From a virus, in IMG/VR virus record IMGVR_UViG_3300049856_000084, positions 1-64,000 of that record: DNA of 64,000 nt; one strand, 5' to 3'. The first letter of the stretch is position 1; the number at the start of each line of letters is the position of its first letter. Below are positions 6,690 through 43,412 of the stretch, in pieces. The translations under genes were made by a program, and so were the position numbers. The notes under the pieces are model-generated. The model did not search any database and was not told the DNA's origin. It saw nothing but the letters and a program-made list of their open reading frames with translations.

Positions 6690-6880
6690 CACTTCACCGC
6701 CTTGGTGGGGTTGGGTGCATCGTGCTGGCGAAATGCGGCCCATCCTTCGAGGATCTCTTCGTACTTCTCGCGTAGGCTCATACGATCTTGCGCCGCGAGT
6801 ACCTTCAGGATTTGGTTCGCCGCTTCGCTGACGGTCACCTGCATTCGGAGCTTCGCTGGTTGCTTCTTTGGTCTTGCCAT
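6689..6880 (-). CDS. ribbon-helix-helix-like DNA-binding protein
   Basis: A 63-residue basic protein. Residues ~10-50 follow the Arc/MetJ ribbon-helix-helix order: a short strand (LRMQVTVS), helix A (EAANQILKVLAAQD), a turn, and helix B (LREKYEEILEGWAAFRQ). The N-terminus ARPKKQPAK is a basic arm. Such proteins act as dimeric operator-binding repressors. It lies near the divergent promoter at 7.1 kb, so local autoregulation is possible. Confidence 0.55.
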   Translation of the reverse strand: MARPKKQPAKLRMQVTVSEAANQILKVLAAQDRMSLREKYEEILEGWAAFRQHDAPNPTKAVK

Positions 6881-7119
6881 TAGAACTGTACCTCGTCTCT
6901 CTCTTCCAGTAACCGATGAAGCCGTTGGTTTTCAGTAATCAATTCGAGCATGTTTCCAGCCATCTCAATCACCTGCTTTTGCAATTGGCTTGCTAAGCGT
7001 AGTAATTCAGGCGACTCTGGGCTTGCTTCGATTATTGGCATTTTGATCGCTTCTCGCAATTCCGCCATATGGCGCGCAAGTTCCGCTTCGGCTTGTTTGA
7101 GTTCGTTTTCTAGGATCAT
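6880..7119 (-). CDS. coiled-coil protein, leaderless start
   Basis: A 79-residue, almost wholly helical protein with heptad-like Leu/Ile spacing (LENELKQAEAELARHMAELR, LRLASQLQKQVIEMAGNMLE, LITENQRLHRLLEER). ATG at 7119 is chosen over an upstream ATG because TACTAT ends 6 bases before it, the same leaderless spacing seen at 33.6-36 kb. Confidence 0.6.
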   Translation of the reverse strand: MILENELKQAEAELARHMAELREAIKMPIIEASPESPELLRLASQLQKQVIEMAGNMLELITENQRLHRLLEERDEVQF

Positions 7120-9833: not shown

Positions 9834-10493
9834 ATGCTCTTCGCGCTCGCGGCGGTACAAGCGATATGCTCAGTAGTGCCGTGGTACAGGTGCCACCAGC
9901 AACGGCTGTACCTGGGCGTGATGTTTTTCGCCTACGACGCATTCCGCCAAATATTGCAGGGTGACCCATGCCATTACAAGGCCTACGCTGCGGCGTGGGT
10001 GGCGCTAGAACCGATTGGCTTGGCGTTGTTGTGCTTAGCGACCCTTGAGGCATCCGGGCGCGTTCTGCGCGGCCACAAGGCTGAAACGGCGGCGTATTAC
10101 CTATTGTGCGTACTGGCGGGGATCAGCTTGATTTGTGGGCTTGCAAAGCTGCTGGAGATACAGAGCAAGATATTTTGGGTGAATACCGAGATTCACAACC
10201 TCACCACATGGCACCAGATCGCGTACGCGGCGTGCTGTGGGCTGCTCGCCTGGGCCGCTGCAAGTACCGGCAATGTGCATTGTAGGCGCATGGCGTGGCT
10301 GTGCGGGGTTGAAGCTGTGTTCATGCTGGCAGGCAATCTCAGGGGCATCTACGGCAGCTTAGTACCTATGGCGCTTTACGTTTCTACGGCGGGAACCAGC
10401 TTGATGTGGGCGCGGCCGGCGTCGGTGACAAACCAGCGGCTGGAGAAGCAGCGGGTATCGTTGGATGCGTCCATCTCCCACAACCGACGCTGA
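9834..10493 (+). CDS. multi-pass membrane protein, leaderless start
   Basis: A 219-residue protein with about six hydrophobic helices (for example LFALAAVQAICSVV, WVALEPIGLALLCLATLEA, YYLLCVLAGISLICGLAKLL, AYAACCGLLAWAAAS). ATG at 9834 follows TATAAT (9822-9827) by 6 bases, so the transcript probably starts at the ATG. It stands alone on the plus strand, and its last 118 bases overlap the convergent gene at 10376. Possible superinfection-exclusion or host membrane modulator, by inference only. Confidence 0.65.
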   Translation: MLFALAAVQAICSVVPWYRCHQQRLYLGVMFFAYDAFRQILQGDPCHYKAYAAAWVALEPIGLALLCLATLEASGRVLRGHKAETAAYYLLCVLAGISLICGLAKLLEIQSKIFWVNTEIHNLTTWHQIAYAACCGLLAWAAASTGNVHCRRMAWLCGVEAVFMLAGNLRGIYGSLVPMALYVSTAGTSLMWARPASVTNQRLEKQRVSLDASISHNRR

Positions 10494-20854: not shown

Positions 20855-21053
20855 GGGAATGTAGCTAACTGGATAAGCTTGTGGTCCGCAAGATCACGGC
20901 TGACGATGTGGCGAAATGGCATACGCGCTGGTCTAGCAAACTGGTGTTAGGTAAAGCTTAAGCCTAGCGTGCTGGTTCGACCCCAGCCATCGTTAGATAA
21001 TCATCCGAACCCGAGGGTGGTTGATTCGAGTTCGAGTCTCGACATTTCCACCA
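20855..21053 (+). other. interrupted tRNA-like outer element with CCA end
   Basis: The 5' end GGGAATG (20855-20861) pairs with CATTTCC (21043-21049), followed by A and an encoded CCA. A D-arm (GCT-AACTGGATA-AGC, 20864-20878) and an arm GTGGT-CCGCAAG-ATCAC (20881-20897) lie in the 5' half; a perfect T-arm (TCGAG-TTCGAGT-CTCGA, 21026-21042) and a hairpin (ATCATCC..GGTTGAT) lie in the 3' half. Between them sits a complete class II tRNA. Anticodon and isotype of the outer element are not resolved (the loop lacks U33). A TATAAT at 20824 could be its -10 box. Confidence 0.45.
20902..20995 (+). tRNA. class II tRNA (Leu-like body, anticodon apparently AGC)
   Basis: Acceptor GACGATG/CATCGTT with A73, D-arm GCG..CGC with GG in the loop, anticodon arm CTGGT-CTAGCAA-ACTGG, long variable arm TTAGG..CCTAG, T-arm GCTGG-TTCGACC-CCAGC. 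The body and A73 are Leu-like, but read with U33 the anticodon is AGC (Ala), not a Leu or Ser anticodon; a one-base register shift would give UAG (Leu). The anticodon stem has two G.U pairs. CCA is not encoded. It lies wholly inside the outer tRNA-like element. Confidence 0.6.
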
Positions 21054-32804: not shown

Positions 32805-32834
32805 GTTGTGTTCCTTTTCTCTACCTTACATAAT

Positions 32835-32864
32835 CAATATACTCTACACTAAGTATATTGTCAA
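32835..32864 (-). promoter_or_regulatory. promoter with palindromic operator, copy 2
   Basis: Minus-strand TTGACA (32864-32859) and TATATT (32841-32836), spacer 17, with palindrome CAATATAC-N10-GTATATTG (32835-32860). The arms and the 10-base gap are the same as at 31303. Confidence 0.75.
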
Positions 32865-33555
32865 TAGCCTTGTGCATCTTTTTTTACTAATCTGCGTTAC
32901 CACAACTTAAACCATATCTCAAGCATTATTAACAGCTTAGAACGCCTTAACTGTAGTTAACTCCACACCTTAACCACAGCTAACAATTCAGCCTTAACCA
33001 CTGCACTATCGTCTCGCGTGTAAGATTTACCGATTCGTGCTACGAAATGACGATTTTATGGCCGATCGTGCTACGATTCGCAGCCGCTACTCGTTTTATG
33101 GCGTTCGCCCCACATTTTGCAACGCTCGCCCTACAATCGCCCAATGTATGCCGCATCCCGCACGCCAGGCGTGTAGCATTGCATTTGGTAGCTATTGCCG
33201 CTACCCGGTTGAGTTGTAAAGGTTTGAGTAGAATACGAACGAAGGCGGGAACAGCTTGTACGGGTTCTGAGTAGGGGTTTTGATGGGCGACTGTATAAAA
33301 TCCCCCCTACCCCCCTTATTGTGGTTTTTGCAACTCAACGCCCATGGTTTTCGGCGCGTTACGTCTTGCGCCTGCCCTTGCCCGCTCACACTGGTTAGGT
33401 GGGGTTCAGATCCCCGGTACGTCGCCGTTCTGTGCCGTGTACCCGATTACGGTAGGTTCCGCTTATCGTTCACGCCCAACGGTGCCTACATTTTGCGCCT
33501 ATTTTCTACCGAATTGCAAGAACTATCGGTTCTGCTTATTTTGAGAGCATTGCTA
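32865..33555. other. non-coding, origin-like region
   Basis: About 690 bases without a convincing gene. CCTTAAC-type repeats at 32945, 32968 and 32992 are spaced 23-24 bases like iterons. Palindromes TTCG-TGCTA-CGAA (33034-33046) and ATCG-TGCTA-CGAT (33065-33077) follow. A large stem (33208-33339) has GTTGAGTTG/CAACTCAAC outer arms and GTAGGGGTTTT/AAAATCCCCCCTAC inner arms. It lies between divergent transcription units, fitting a replication origin or master control region. Confidence 0.5.
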
Positions 33556-33604
33556 TATAAGCTGTGCTTATACTTCTTGACGTACTACATGAAACGATTA
33601 CACT
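33556..33604 (+). promoter_or_regulatory. operator and leaderless promoter for 33611
   Basis: A perfect palindrome TATAAGC-TGT-GCTTATA (33556-33572) abuts TTGACG (33577-33582). TACACT (33599-33604) follows at 16 bases, and the ATG is 6 bases later, so the first base of the message is near the start codon. Confidence 0.7.
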
Positions 33605-33610
33605 GGAACT

Positions 33611-34015
33611 ATGGCAAAACAAAGGCGTTATCAACACACAGCAGAAGGCAAGGTCATGCTCCAATTAGCCAAAAGGCGTCTCCGGCGCATTTTGCGGGAG
33701 ATCATGGACCACAACGCGGAACTTGATCGATTTAGAGAACTTGGGTATGAGGTTGACTGTCCTATTGTCGGTGGCGGGCCTGTCTATCTGCAAAAATGGC
33801 CGGTTCCGTTACTCACATTGTCAGCTAACCAAGTGGTGGACGTTTGGGACGATACGCTATTCGATGACTTTCTAGAGCAAGGCCCAGACCTCGACCCTAA
33901 GTCAATCAAGCGTAGGGCAAGGGAAGACGCAGACAGAGCTATCTTTGACCGGGCTATCTTGGCCTCTGAGCCACCCAAGAGTTTGGCGAGCATCGAACTG
34001 GCGGAATCCGCTTGA
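33611..34015 (+). CDS. leaderless small protein ending SLASIELAESA
   Basis: A 134-residue basic protein. Helical N-terminus (EGKVMLQLAKRRLRRILREI), beta middle (GPVYLQKWPVPLLTLSANQV), helical end. The last residues LASIELAESA are shared with the next gene through a 24-base identical sequence. Function unknown. Confidence 0.65.
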   Translation: MAKQRRYQHTAEGKVMLQLAKRRLRRILREIMDHNAELDRFRELGYEVDCPIVGGGPVYLQKWPVPLLTLSANQVVDVWDDTLFDDFLEQGPDLDPKSIKRRAREDADRAIFDRAILASEPPKSLASIELAESA

Positions 34016-34030
34016 CGCTGGGTGTATAAT
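34012..34030 (+). promoter_or_regulatory. TTGACG-N7-TATAAT element before 34037
   Basis: TTGACG overlaps the TGA stop of the previous gene; TATAAT (34025-34030) is only 7 bases further and 6 bases before the ATG. The short spacing is the same as at 42878 and 50478. Confidence 0.5.
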
Positions 34031-34036
34031 CGGGCT

Positions 34037-34498
34037 ATGAGCATAGACGAACGGCGCAAAAGCGATTACAAAGCGTTGCGGGATTCCTTATTCGTGGCTG
34101 ACTGGTATTTTAATCGGTCCCAGTTGATCGCAGACCACTTCGCCAGCATTGACCGCATGGAAGCCAAGGAAAATGAGTGGATAAAGGCATTGCAAGCGCA
34201 GGGCATTAAAGCCGCACATCCCGACGATGGGTGGGTTAATCGAGCCGAAAACTACATTACATTGTGCTACCCGTCGTTCGATGATGGCCTGGAAGTTGGG
34301 TCTAAGCTGGTTCTCGGTAGCTCGCTACGGGATAAATACCGGGTAGTTGAGATCACTAGAGCAGATCATATTTGGGTGGGACTAACTCACTGGTATTTTA
34401 AGCCAGTCCAAGAACCAAAACGCCCCAGCCGGTTTAGCGTGGCTCTCGATTGGATTAGGCGACGGTTGGCGAGCATCGAACTGGCGGAAAGCGCTTGA
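34037..34498 (+). CDS. leaderless protein, unknown
   Basis: A 153-residue protein from ATG 34037. Helical N-terminus (DERRKSDYKALRDSLFVADW), then a beta part (GLEVGSKLVLGSSLRDKYRV, IWVGLTHWYFKPVQ). Its last ten residues LASIELAESA copy those of 33611. It starts MSI like the next gene. Function unknown. Confidence 0.65.
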   Translation: MSIDERRKSDYKALRDSLFVADWYFNRSQLIADHFASIDRMEAKENEWIKALQAQGIKAAHPDDGWVNRAENYITLCYPSFDDGLEVGSKLVLGSSLRDKYRVVEITRADHIWVGLTHWYFKPVQEPKRPSRFSVALDWIRRRLASIELAESA

Positions 34499-34522
34499 TG
34501 TTTATCGAGATGCGTCTATAAT
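34495..34522 (+). promoter_or_regulatory. leaderless promoter before 34529
   Basis: TTGATG (34495-34500, containing the previous stop) and TATAAT (34517-34522), spacer 16, then 6 bases to ATG. Confidence 0.7.
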
Positions 34523-34528
34523 CGAGTT

Positions 34529-34783
34529 ATGAGCATCAACTTTGACCCCAAGCAGCATGATTACACCAGGCACCAAACATACAGCGGTCAAGGCTGTGCG
34601 ATGTGCGGGCGCGAGATTGCCGATCATTGGCAGGGCCAGCCGGTTGACGCAATTTCTCGATACGCGCCTGGCAAGTTGCTGCGGATTCACCCTGATGCCT
34701 ACCGACTTTTGGATGATAGACCTGGCGGTCGAAACCAGTCAGGGGACTCAGGTAGCGAGTTTCTCAAAGCTATTGGGCTGTGA
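34529..34783 (+). CDS. leaderless small protein, unknown
   Basis: An 84-residue protein: SINFDPKQHDYTRHQTYSGQ, GCAMCGREIADHWQ with CxxC and His (possible zinc), then a basic part. No family recognised. Confidence 0.6.
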   Translation: MSINFDPKQHDYTRHQTYSGQGCAMCGREIADHWQGQPVDAISRYAPGKLLRIHPDAYRLLDDRPGGRNQSGDSGSEFLKAIGL

Positions 34784-34834
34784 TACAGTAGAGCTACACG
34801 GATACCCTTCATTAACCCGTTGAGTGTTCACCGA

Positions 34835-34873
34835 TCTGGTTCGTCGGTCCCTTTCAAAAGCTAACGAACCAGA
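34835..34873 (+). terminator. stem-loop TCTGGTTCGT..ACGAACCAGA
   Basis: A 10-bp perfect stem with a 19-base loop in the 145-base gap after 34783. It ends 44 bases before the next -10 box. It may terminate transcription from the previous promoter, though the T-run is weak. Confidence 0.45.
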
Positions 34874-34894
34874 CCTTCTTGCTCGTACCTACTA

Positions 34895-34922
34895 CGGACC
34901 GGCGCGGGATTCGGGATATAAT
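34895..34922 (+). promoter_or_regulatory. leaderless promoter before 34929
   Basis: TATAAT (34917-34922) 6 bases before ATG. The 16 bases upstream are the same GGCGCGGGATTCGGGA as at 35123-35138; the -35 is degenerate (CGGACC). Confidence 0.6.
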
Positions 34923-34928
34923 CCAAAT

Positions 34929-35120
34929 ATGAACTTGATCTGGATCTGCGAGAACCCGGAATGCAGGGCAGAATACCAGGAGTATTGCAACGGTTGCCCC
35001 AAGTGTAGCTCACGGCCATTCCCGCTGATATTCTCGGTTCGGTGCGCTGGAAGGCCTGAAACAGATGAAACGCGCACCATGATCGAAGCGTTTGAATCCG
35101 AACACAACCAAAGCGCTTGA
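34929..35120 (+). CDS. leaderless zinc-finger-like protein
   Basis: A 63-residue protein: WICENPECRAEYQEYCNGCP, KCSSRPFPL, with paired Cys for one zinc site, then an acidic C-terminal helix. Its TGA is inside the next -35 box. Confidence 0.65.
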   Translation: MNLIWICENPECRAEYQEYCNGCPKCSSRPFPLIFSVRCAGRPETDETRTMIEAFESEHNQSA

Positions 35121-35144
35121 CCGGCGCGGGATTCGGGATATACT
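35117..35144 (+). promoter_or_regulatory. leaderless promoter before 35150
   Basis: TTGACC (35117-35122), 16-base spacer GGCGCGGGATTCGGGA, TATACT (35139-35144), 5 bases to ATG. Confidence 0.75.
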
Positions 35145-35149
35145 GAGGC

Positions 35150-35365
35150 ATGGACATCGACCGGCGTATTCTCATAGGCGGAAACCACCTAGCCAACGCC
35201 TTAATTGGAACTGAGATTCCTAACAACTTCGCCAACTACCAAGAAGCACTGGCAGCGCACGGTCAGCCCTATGCCGATATGTGGGTCTGTTGGCGTGCGA
35301 TCATGGATGTTAGAGACGATAACTCCCTGTATCGGCAACGATCCAAGCTGCCAGTGTCAAGATAA
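35150..35365 (+). CDS. leaderless small protein, unknown
   Basis: A 71-residue soluble protein (IGGNHLANALIGTEIPNNFA, YADMWVCWRAIMDVRDDNSL). No family recognised. Confidence 0.6.
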   Translation: MDIDRRILIGGNHLANALIGTEIPNNFANYQEALAAHGQPYADMWVCWRAIMDVRDDNSLYRQRSKLPVSR

Positions 35366-35396
35366 GCCCTAAATCTGAGTGGCCTGCTTTCAGCGG

Positions 35397-35424
35397 TTGA
35401 ACTTCGCGGGATTCGGTTTATACT
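35397..35424 (+). promoter_or_regulatory. leaderless promoter before 35430
   Basis: TTGAAC (35397-35402), 16-base spacer ending CGGGATTCGGTT, TATACT (35419-35424), 5 bases to ATG. Confidence 0.75.
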
Positions 35425-35429
35425 GAGGC

Positions 35430-35612
35430 ATGGAACAAACTATGGACCTACAAAAAGAAAACGAGCAACTGAAAGCGCAAGTCGCCGCTATGGGACTAGA
35501 AATCAGGGAATTGCAAGATGAGCGACTCAATGACTTGAAGCATATGCCGTGGCAGATATTCGACCCCGTAGAACGCGCAATCCTCACCCGGTTAGGGGCT
35601 GGCCTAAAGTGA
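35430..35612 (+). CDS. leaderless coiled-coil protein
   Basis: A 60-residue helical protein (LQKENEQLKAQVAAMGLEIR, ELQDERLNDLKHM). GTGA overlap with the HTH gene that follows, so the two are co-translated and may interact. Confidence 0.6.
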   Translation: MEQTMDLQKENEQLKAQVAAMGLEIRELQDERLNDLKHMPWQIFDPVERAILTRLGAGLK

Positions 35613-35851
35613 GTAACCTTTTAAGCACATCACAGGTAGCAGCGGAGCTTTCGCGTCATCGCTCCACAATCTATCGATTGCTGCGTATTGGCAAACTGCG
35701 CGGGACGCTAACCGGAAAAGGTTGGCGCATAGTCTCGCCGCAATACGAAATATCGCTAATGATGAACGTATTGAAAGCAGACATCGACCGGAAAGTTAAG
35801 GACTGGGCCAGGGAGCATGGTAATCTTGCACGCGGCGCGGATTCGGTGTAA
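35609..35851 (+). CDS. MerR/excisionase-like HTH protein
   Basis: An 80-residue protein from GTG 35609. STSQVAAELSRHRSTIYRLL, RIGKLRGTLTGKGWRIVSP is the HTH_17 pattern of excisionase-type and small MerR-like regulators. A helical tail follows (ADIDRKVKDWAREHGN). Without an integrase in the window it is more likely a transcription factor. Confidence 0.75.
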   Translation: MSNLLSTSQVAAELSRHRSTIYRLLRIGKLRGTLTGKGWRIVSPQYEISLMMNVLKADIDRKVKDWAREHGNLARGADSV

Positions 35852-35905
35852 GATGGGTGCTGGTGGTCCGCTTGCGAGTATGAGGGGTCTGTTTGTTAGG
35901 CCCCT
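35826..35905 (+). ncRNA. candidate short RNA with own promoter and terminator-like hairpin
   Basis: TTGCAC (35826-35831) and TAAGAT (35849-35854), spacer 17, with the CGCGGATTCGG signature. Instead of a gene, a hairpin AGGGGTCT-N7-AGGCCCCT (35883-35905) follows. A transcript of roughly 45 bases could be made. Confidence 0.35.
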
Positions 35906-35925
35906 TACACTATCAGCCCCAACAC

Positions 35926-35953
35926 TTGCACTTCCCGGCGATTCGGTTATAAT
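35926..35953 (+). promoter_or_regulatory. leaderless promoter before 35959
   Basis: TTGCAC (35926-35931), 16-base spacer ending CGGCGATTCGGT, TATAAT (35948-35953), 5 bases to ATG. Confidence 0.75.
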
Positions 35954-35958
35954 CAGGC

Positions 35959-36318
35959 ATGGCAACACAAACCAGAACAAACGGCGCATTGGTTGGCGCA
36001 TCCACCATCAAAGGGCTGGAAACGTATCTCGGGAAAGTGCAGAATGTTAACACATCCAATGAGCCGGAAGTGCGAGAGATCCCGCACGAGTTAAACCGGC
36101 TGGCTGTTCGCCTTGAGGATATGGAGTGCCGATGGCGTTGGGTGTGCGAGAGACTGAATCCGGCGCTAACATCTGATATTCCTGCCGTAAGCACTGATGA
36201 TGGCGATACCAGAGAAGCCTGTCATACTGAGCTAGCAGCCACGATCCAACACGCAAACAGGCGCATTGAGTCACTTGTTGAAGGTATGGACAACGTGTTA
36301 AACAGGCTGCAACTGTAA
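35959..36318 (+). CDS. leaderless protein with coiled coil
   Basis: A 119-residue protein, helical in the middle (ELNRLAVRLEDMECRWRWVC) and C-terminus (AATIQHANRRIESLVEGMDN). TAATG overlap with the next gene. Confidence 0.65.
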   Translation: MATQTRTNGALVGASTIKGLETYLGKVQNVNTSNEPEVREIPHELNRLAVRLEDMECRWRWVCERLNPALTSDIPAVSTDDGDTREACHTELAATIQHANRRIESLVEGMDNVLNRLQL

Positions 36319-42881: not shown

Positions 42882-42896
42882 CAGTTCGTGTATAAT
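42878..42896 (+). promoter_or_regulatory. TTGACA-N7-TATAAT element (late promoter candidate)
   Basis: TTGACA (42878-42883) and TATAAT (42891-42896), 7 bases apart, 6 bases before ATG 42903. Same spacing and GTGTATA core as at 34012 and 50478. Confidence 0.5.
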
Positions 42897-42902
42897 GCCG
42901 AT

Positions 42903-43412
42903 ATGGGCCAAGTAGTTTGCAAACCGCGACTTGAGGATAAAATGACCCTCAAGTTGAAGCTGAAGCCAATTCTTGAAGCGATGGCCGATCACGTGCAACT
43001 GAACGCTGATGGCGAATTTGTACCGTTTGACCCACTTTCCAAGATTATCGAGATTGCGAGTGGGAATATGGTTTGCGGCGTATGCCACGGCGACAAAGAG
43101 GCCAAATACGCGCTTACGGATGAAGATGGCAACCGGCTGAAGGACGAAGCAGGGAACATTAAAACGGCGTTTCGGCTTTGCCAGTCATGCTACGGCACTG
43201 GGAAGGAAGCGCTTTCACCCAAAATCGTGCTGGATGCCAATGAAATGCTGCTGGCTAAGATGTACCCTGATTTGAAGGCAATTGAGCATACTGGGGACGT
43301 TGGCAACGGGCTGGCAGAAGCGATTCTGGAGCGTCGGCGTCTGAGGGAAGCAATGCGAGAGCAGGAAGACAAAACGATAACCGTGCCTCCGGCGCATGAG
43401 CAAGTTCAATGA
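42903..43412 (+). CDS. putative small terminase subunit with zinc finger
   Basis: A 169-residue protein. A central zinc finger (NMVCGVCHGDKEAKYALTDE ... CQSCYGTGKEAL) is followed by PKIVLDANEMLLAKMYPDLK, AIEHTGDVGNGLAEAILERR. The YPxLKAIEHTG end resembles small terminase proteins that mark phage DNA for packaging. TerL lies downstream across the tail spike gene. Medium confidence; it could instead be another DNA-binding protein. Confidence 0.55.
   Translation: MGQVVCKPRLEDKMTLKLKLKPILEAMADHVQLNADGEFVPFDPLSKIIEIASGNMVCGVCHGDKEAKYALTDEDGNRLKDEAGNIKTAFRLCQSCYGTGKEALSPKIVLDANEMLLAKMYPDLKAIEHTGDVGNGLAEAILERRRLREAMREQEDKTITVPPAHEQVQ

What the first reader, a model, noticed from the sequence alone, without database searches (positions are those of the whole stretch)
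33577..35959. Array of near-identical promoters giving leaderless mRNAs
At least six genes (33611, 34037, 34529, 34929, 35150, 35430, 35959) start 5-6 bases after a TATAAT, TATACT or TACACT box, so transcription should begin at the ATG itself. Four share the spacer signature CGGGATTCGG or CGATTCGG with a fixed 16-base spacer. Other single genes show the same geometry (7119 minus, 9834, 41234 minus, 42903). One-promoter-per-small-gene, leaderless arrays are not usual in phages and would give expression independent of Shine-Dalgarno recognition.
Basis: partly seen in the sequence, partly recalled or inferred. Interest (0 to 1): 0.8.

Follow-up and report, generated by a model that had tools for sequence, protein, structure and literature searches.

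The report
Array of leaderless promoters in phage
A phage that probably infects soil Acidobacteria carries seven small genes in a row, each with its own promoter placed so close to the start codon that the messenger RNA should begin at the first codon, a known but usually scattered layout that is here clustered and partly built from one repeated promoter sequence.

Summary
All seven ATGs at 33611-35959 lie 5 or 6 bases after TATAAT, TATACT or TACACT: 7 sites against 0.08 expected. A promoter scan of every ATG-starting ORF in the window finds 9 hits at distance 5-6 and at most 1 at any other distance from 0 to 30 (P about 7e-8). At three genes an in-frame stop lies 3-6 nt upstream, so no longer protein is possible. 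Usable Shine-Dalgarno sequences are missing, unlike at most genes of this phage.

Four copies share a 43-bp cassette with GATTCGG in the spacer; a fifth, degenerate copy has no gene start.

The phage has P22-like head genes. Its terminase sits in a clade whose only labelled members are Acidobacteriota, one of them integrated in a Bryobacterales chromosome. Acidobacteria are predicted to have 10-19% leaderless genes (PMC3160421), so the leaderless mode is probably ordinary for the host. The clustering and the shared cassette are the unusual part.

No relative with the array was found, so conservation is untested, and nothing here measures RNA 5' ends. Verdict: new variant of a known kind.

The parts
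33577..33604 (+). Promoter 1: TTGACG-N16-TACACT, 6 nt before the ATG of 33611; spacer not of the GATTCGG type
33611..34015 (+). Gene, 134 aa, no family match; an internal ATG at 33704 with an SD-like sequence is an alternative start
34025..34030 (+). Promoter 2 -10 box TATAAT, 6 nt before the ATG of 34037; no -35 at 16-18 nt, TTGACG only 7 nt upstream
34037..34498 (+). Gene, 153 aa, phrog_9621 (function unknown); a relative aligns from residue 6, supporting this ATG
34495..34522 (+). Promoter 3: TTGATG-N16-TATAAT, 6 nt before the ATG of 34529; its -35 overlaps the stop codon of the previous gene
34529..34783 (+). Gene, 84 aa, one CxxC pair, no family match
34895..34922 (+). Promoter 4: spacer GCGGGATTCGG, TATAAT, 6 nt before the ATG of 34929; no recognisable -35 (CGGACC)
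34929..35120 (+). Gene, 63 aa, four cysteines near the N-terminus resembling a zinc ribbon (by eye)
35117..35144 (+). Promoter 5: TTGACC-N16-TATACT with GCGGGATTCGG, 5 nt before the ATG of 35150; -35 overlaps the previous stop codon
35150..35365 (+). Gene, 71 aa; in-frame stop 3 nt before the ATG and no other start in the first 40 codons
35397..35424 (+). Promoter 6: TTGAAC-N16-TATACT with GCGGGATTCGG, 5 nt before the ATG of 35430
35430..35612 (+). Gene, 60 aa, heptad-like sequence; in-frame stop 3 nt before the ATG
35609..35851 (+). Gene with HTH_17 / excisionase-like domain, GTG start overlapping the stop of 35430; no promoter of its own seen
35822..35854 (+). Degenerate cassette copy: TTGCAC-N17-TAAGAT with GGATTCGG; no leaderless start codon after it
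35926..35953 (+). Promoter 7: TTGCAC-N16-TATAAT with CGATTCGG, 5 nt before the ATG of 35959
35959..36318 (+). Gene, 119 aa, no family match; in-frame stop 6 nt before the ATG
42903..43412 (+). Outlying leaderless candidate, 169 aa: TATAAT 6 nt before the ATG; TTGACA 7 nt before the -10 as at 34037
9834..10493 (+). Outlying leaderless candidate, 219 aa: TATAAT 6 nt before the ATG
6880..7119 (-). Weak outlying candidate, 79 aa: TTGTAA-N18-TACTAT, 6 nt before the ATG

Best explanation
A compact module of seven small phage genes, each headed by its own promoter for the host's primary (sigma70-type) RNA polymerase. Each -10 box ends 5 or 6 bases before the ATG, so the mRNAs begin at or next to the AUG and are translated without a Shine-Dalgarno. 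Shown here: the promoter-like sequences, the fixed distance, the lack of alternative starts and of usable Shine-Dalgarno sequences, and the repeated spacer cassette. Inferred: that the promoters are active, that the 5' ends are at the AUG, that the host is an acidobacterium in which leaderless initiation is routine, and that the shared GATTCGG spacer either marks four promoters for joint control or reflects copying of one promoter in front of successive genes.
For: 7 sites against 0.077 expected. Distance histogram over all ORFs peaks only at 5-6 nt (P 6.8e-8). All seven ATGs open long ORFs; at five of them no start codon lies between the upstream in-frame stop and the ATG, and at three the stop is 3-6 nt away. 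Array genes lack the Shine-Dalgarno seen at most other genes. A 43-nt repeat spans promoter to ATG while the flanks differ. Terminase clade labelled only Acidobacteriota at 100/100, one member integrated beside cellular genes. Acidobacteria 3 of 3 genomes with 9.7-19.4% predicted leaderless genes (PMC3160421), and a modest excess of promoters 6-8 nt before ATGs in two genomes of that order but none at 4-13 nt in E. coli.
Against: No RNA data. 34037 and 34929 lack a normal -35. At distance 5 the A of the ATG is the 6th base after the -10, at the short end of the usual start-site range. In the two acidobacterial samples the excess is at 6-8 nt, not 5. 33611 has an internal start with an SD-like sequence. 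The capsid gives no support for the host call. No relative carries the array.
Confidence: 0.75

Rival explanations
1. The promoters are real, but some genes start at an internal codon with a Shine-Dalgarno, so the first ATG is incidental and the mRNAs have short leaders.
For: 33611 has an in-frame ATG at 33704 with SD energy -6.2 kcal/mol, and 42903 one at codon 14 with -5.6.
Against: 35150 has no other start in its first 40 codons; the internal starts of the other genes have weak or badly spaced SDs. The homologue of 34037 aligns from residue 6. A fixed 5-6 nt distance would have no reason.
Confidence: 0.1
2. The repeats are copies of one promoter spread by recent recombination among small genes (a recombination junction as much as a regulatory module), so the shared spacer has no function of its own.
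For: Identity is confined to the promoter and a 33-nt repeat joins the 3' end of two unrelated genes to the next promoter; one copy has decayed. Short repeats at gene borders have served recombination in cluster O phages (PMC4351075).
Against: The GATTCGG word is kept even where the rest of the repeat is only 63-65% alike and where the distance to the -10 shifts by one base, which suggests selection on it; three of the seven promoters do not belong to the repeat yet have the same distance to ATG. This rival does not contradict leaderless expression.
Confidence: 0.4
3. The boxes are not promoters: the genes are transcribed by read-through from further upstream and the TATAAT words are chance or serve another protein.
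For: Two sites lack a -35; the plain consensus scan finds only 8 promoter-like sites against 4.0 (sd 2.1) in shuffles of this region.
Against: The distance-specific excess is about 90-fold. Read-through mRNA would have no Shine-Dalgarno to start from. Hairpins lie before promoters 4 and 7.
Confidence: 0.05

Closest known systems
Bacterial leaderless genes with a -10 box next to the ORF (Zheng et al. 2011, PMC3160421; Deinococcus-Thermus, PMC12340547)
   Same: TANNNT/TATAAT box a few bases before the start codon, no Shine-Dalgarno, primary sigma factor
   Different: There scattered over the genome; here seven in a row in a phage, four of them built from one cassette
Predicted leaderless promoters of cluster O mycobacteriophages (PMC4351075)
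   Different: A few promoters heading long operons; not an array over successive small genes and no common spacer word reported
Start-Associated Sequences of cluster K mycobacteriophages (PMC3203893)
   Same: Asymmetric repeat placed a few bases before the start codons of many small non-structural phage genes
   Different: SAS contains a Shine-Dalgarno core and is proposed to act in translation; this cassette is a promoter without a Shine-Dalgarno

Membership tests
Bacterial leaderless genes (sigma70 type) | -10 box about 12 nt upstream of the start codon (box edge 5-7 nt away) | tested here: met
   All seven at 5 or 6 nt; histogram peak
Bacterial leaderless genes (sigma70 type) | No Shine-Dalgarno for the start codon | tested here: met
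   Weak pairing at six of seven; at 34037 the pairing lies upstream of the expected RNA start
Bacterial leaderless genes (sigma70 type) | Mapped 5' end at the start codon | not testable with these tools
   No RNA data for this phage
Start-Associated Sequences (cluster K) | Consensus GGGATAGGAGCCC containing AGGAG before the start codon | tested here: not met
   The repeat reads GCGGGATTCGG-N2-TATAMT-N5/6-ATG with no AGGAG
Phage of Acidobacteriota | Hallmark gene nests with sequences from Acidobacteriota genomes | tested here: met
   Terminase clade of 8 rows, all four labelled rows Acidobacteriota, 100/100; one lies in a chromosome with cellular genes and an integrase
Phage of Acidobacteriota | Other hallmark genes agree | tested here: inconclusive
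   Capsid: one weak match (31%) in 297 genomes; adaptor gene 55188 32% to the acidobacterial contig L018

The most novel reading that the evidence does not exclude
The GATTCGG cassettes are a phage regulon: a phage-encoded factor (for example the HTH_17 protein made inside the array) acts at the promoter spacer and switches on a block of leaderless mRNAs together, giving these proteins a translation route that does not depend on Shine-Dalgarno initiation during infection.
Probability: 0.15. Interest if true: 0.75.

Novelty: new variant of a known kind. Interest (0 to 1): 0.45.

Why it matters
Leaderless genes are usually found scattered through genomes. A dense set with near-identical promoters in one phage would be a natural test bed for how leaderless mRNAs are made and translated in Acidobacteria, for which the papers searched gave predictions but no mapped leaderless transcripts. 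It also warns that gene callers that lean on Shine-Dalgarno signals misplace starts here: my own simple caller chose an internal start for 33611 and dropped 35150.

Tried and rejected
Exact promoter-family patterns in viral contigs: none with N5; one with N4-6, which lies inside a coding sequence and is chance. Relatives through the capsid, 42903 and 33611 proteins in viral contigs: none. Close DNA relatives in the phage collection: none. The nearest phage by head proteins (G001, capsid 47%) has no promoter at 5-6 nt. The 34037 family in Acidobacteria: none in 297 genomes; its relatives elsewhere do not show this promoter. Rfam for the array and the 35855-35920 hairpin: none. Low structure or A-rich first codons as a leaderless aid: A 0.37 against 0.31 and folding -4.1 against -5.1 kcal/mol, too small a difference with seven genes. 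Membership in the cluster K Start-Associated Sequences was rejected because the motif is absent. Canonical intrinsic terminators between the genes: the tool found none at the gene borders, only hairpins without a good U tract, so full insulation of each gene is not claimed.

Full report
What is there. Between 33577 and 36318 on the + strand, seven small genes (134, 153, 84, 63, 71, 60 and 119 aa) each begin 5 or 6 bases after a -10-like box. Five have a TTG hexamer exactly 16 bases upstream of the box; 34929 has CGGACC there, and 34037 has TTGACG only 7 bases upstream. Four of them (34929, 35150, 35430, 35959) are copies of one 43-nt repeat running from the -35 to just past the ATG (the other copies 63-86% identical to the reference), with the spacer word GATTCGG. 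A fifth, degenerate copy at 35822-35854 has a weak -10 (TAAGAT), no start codon at the right place, and is followed by a strong hairpin.

Is it chance? No. The box-N5/6-ATG pattern occurs 7 times on this strand of the region against 0.077 in shuffles, and with a TTG at the 16-base position 5 times against 0.0005. A scan that does not presuppose any distance, over all 311 ATG-starting ORFs of at least 50 aa, gives 9 promoter-like hits at 5-6 nt and 6 in total at the other 29 distances (P 6.8e-8). The nine are six of the seven array genes plus 9834, 42903 and, weaker, 7119 on the minus strand; the seventh, 34037, has a perfect -10 but too poor a -35 for the cut-off. All seven array ATGs open 60 codons or more, P about 4e-9 for random ATGs.

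Are these ATGs the starts? For 35150, 35430 and 35959 the in-frame stop lies 3, 3 and 6 nt upstream, so no longer protein is possible. For 33611 and 34529 there is no start codon between stop and ATG; for 34037 the only one lies inside the -10 region; for 34929 a GTG 105 nt upstream is possible. 35150 has no other start in its first 40 codons. A homologue of 34037 aligns from residue 6. 33611 has a possible internal start at 33704 with an SD-like sequence. Most other genes of this phage show Shine-Dalgarno pairing (median -6.6 kcal/mol against -2.1 at random positions), the array genes do not. The one exception, 34037 (-6.3), pairs through GGGUG, which lies upstream of the expected RNA start.

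Where does it live? The record is a 64.9-kb virus contig with P22-like portal, coat, scaffold and terminase, a RecT-like and a Gam-like protein, an endolysin and an HNH nuclease. The terminase groups with four Acidobacteriota sequences at 100/100 support, together with unlabelled viral contigs. One of these relatives lies in a Bryobacterales contig that also carries an integrase and cellular genes such as zwf, a lolC/E-like permease and glutamate decarboxylase, so it is an integrated element, not only a binned phage contig. The capsid has only one weak match in 297 acidobacterial genomes, so the host call is probable rather than shown.

Does the host lineage do this? A published survey predicts leaderless genes in 3 of 3 acidobacterial genomes, 9.7-19.4% of genes (PMC3160421). 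In 760 kb from two genomes of the order of the SbA4 relative, promoter-like hits near ATG are in excess at 6-8 nt (14 of 48; P about 1.6e-4 with bins chosen after looking), whereas 200 kb of E. coli K-12 shows none at 4-13 nt. In 41 genomes of that order strong promoters with an ATG within 20 nt favour short distances, but broadly, with 19 of 80 at 4-6 nt. The ten or so leaderless candidates among about 140 genes are therefore not more than such a host would have. The clustering and the shared cassette are the unusual part.

How it probably works. Host RNA polymerase starts each mRNA at or next to the AUG, and ribosomes start on the 5'-terminal AUG, as established for leaderless mRNAs. The four cassette promoters probably share a regulator, a common origin, or both. 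The HTH_17 protein encoded at 35609-35851, whose GTG overlaps the stop of gene 35430, is a candidate regulator without direct evidence. A 33-nt repeat shared by the 3' ends of genes 33611 and 34037, reaching the stop codon just before the next promoter, suggests recombination at these junctions.

What is known. Leaderless phage promoters have been predicted before (cluster O mycobacteriophages, PMC4351075), and the AR9 study says phage transcripts are often leaderless (PMC5312081). Repeats just before the starts of many small phage genes are known in cluster K (PMC3203893), but those carry a Shine-Dalgarno core. In eight literature searches I found no description of a run of leaderless promoters built from one cassette; the library is incomplete, so this is weak evidence of novelty.

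Limits. No RNA data, no relatives with the array, a probable but unproven host, and no known function for the proteins of the array apart from weak motif hints.

Noticed in passing
35822-35920: A degenerate GGATTCGG promoter copy overlaps the end of the HTH gene and is followed by a strong hairpin (35855-35920, -33 kcal/mol, z -2.8); possibly a small RNA or a terminator; no Rfam match.
   Followed up: partly
34013-34030 and 42891-42896: Two leaderless candidates (34037, 42903) share TTGACR-N4-GTG-TATAAT-N6-ATG, with the TTGAC word only 7 bp from the -10, too close to be a normal -35; perhaps a regulator site.
   Followed up: no
33983-34015 and 34466-34498: A 33-nt direct repeat (94% identical) encodes the same C-terminus (LASIELAESA) of two otherwise unrelated proteins and ends at the following promoter.
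   Followed up: partly
32805-33576: Long intergenic region between divergent gene blocks with repeated words such as CGATTCGTGCTACGA and CGTGCTACGATTCG, and a minus-strand TTGACA-N17-TATATT promoter at 32864-32836; possible control region or origin.
   Followed up: no
20901-20996: A tRNA-like gene called tRNA-Ala with the anticodon AGC, unusually long (94-96 nt); Rfam tRNA score 43.
   Followed up: no
34037-34498: Member of a phage family of unknown function (phrog_9621) with the motif AAHPDDGWVNR, found in nine viral contigs of 28-69% GC.
   Followed up: partly
L105:17469-18479 to L106:7810-9285: A Bryobacterales MAG contig holds an integrated element with integrase, a serine recombinase and a terminase 59% identical to this phage's, flanked by cellular genes.
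   Followed up: partly
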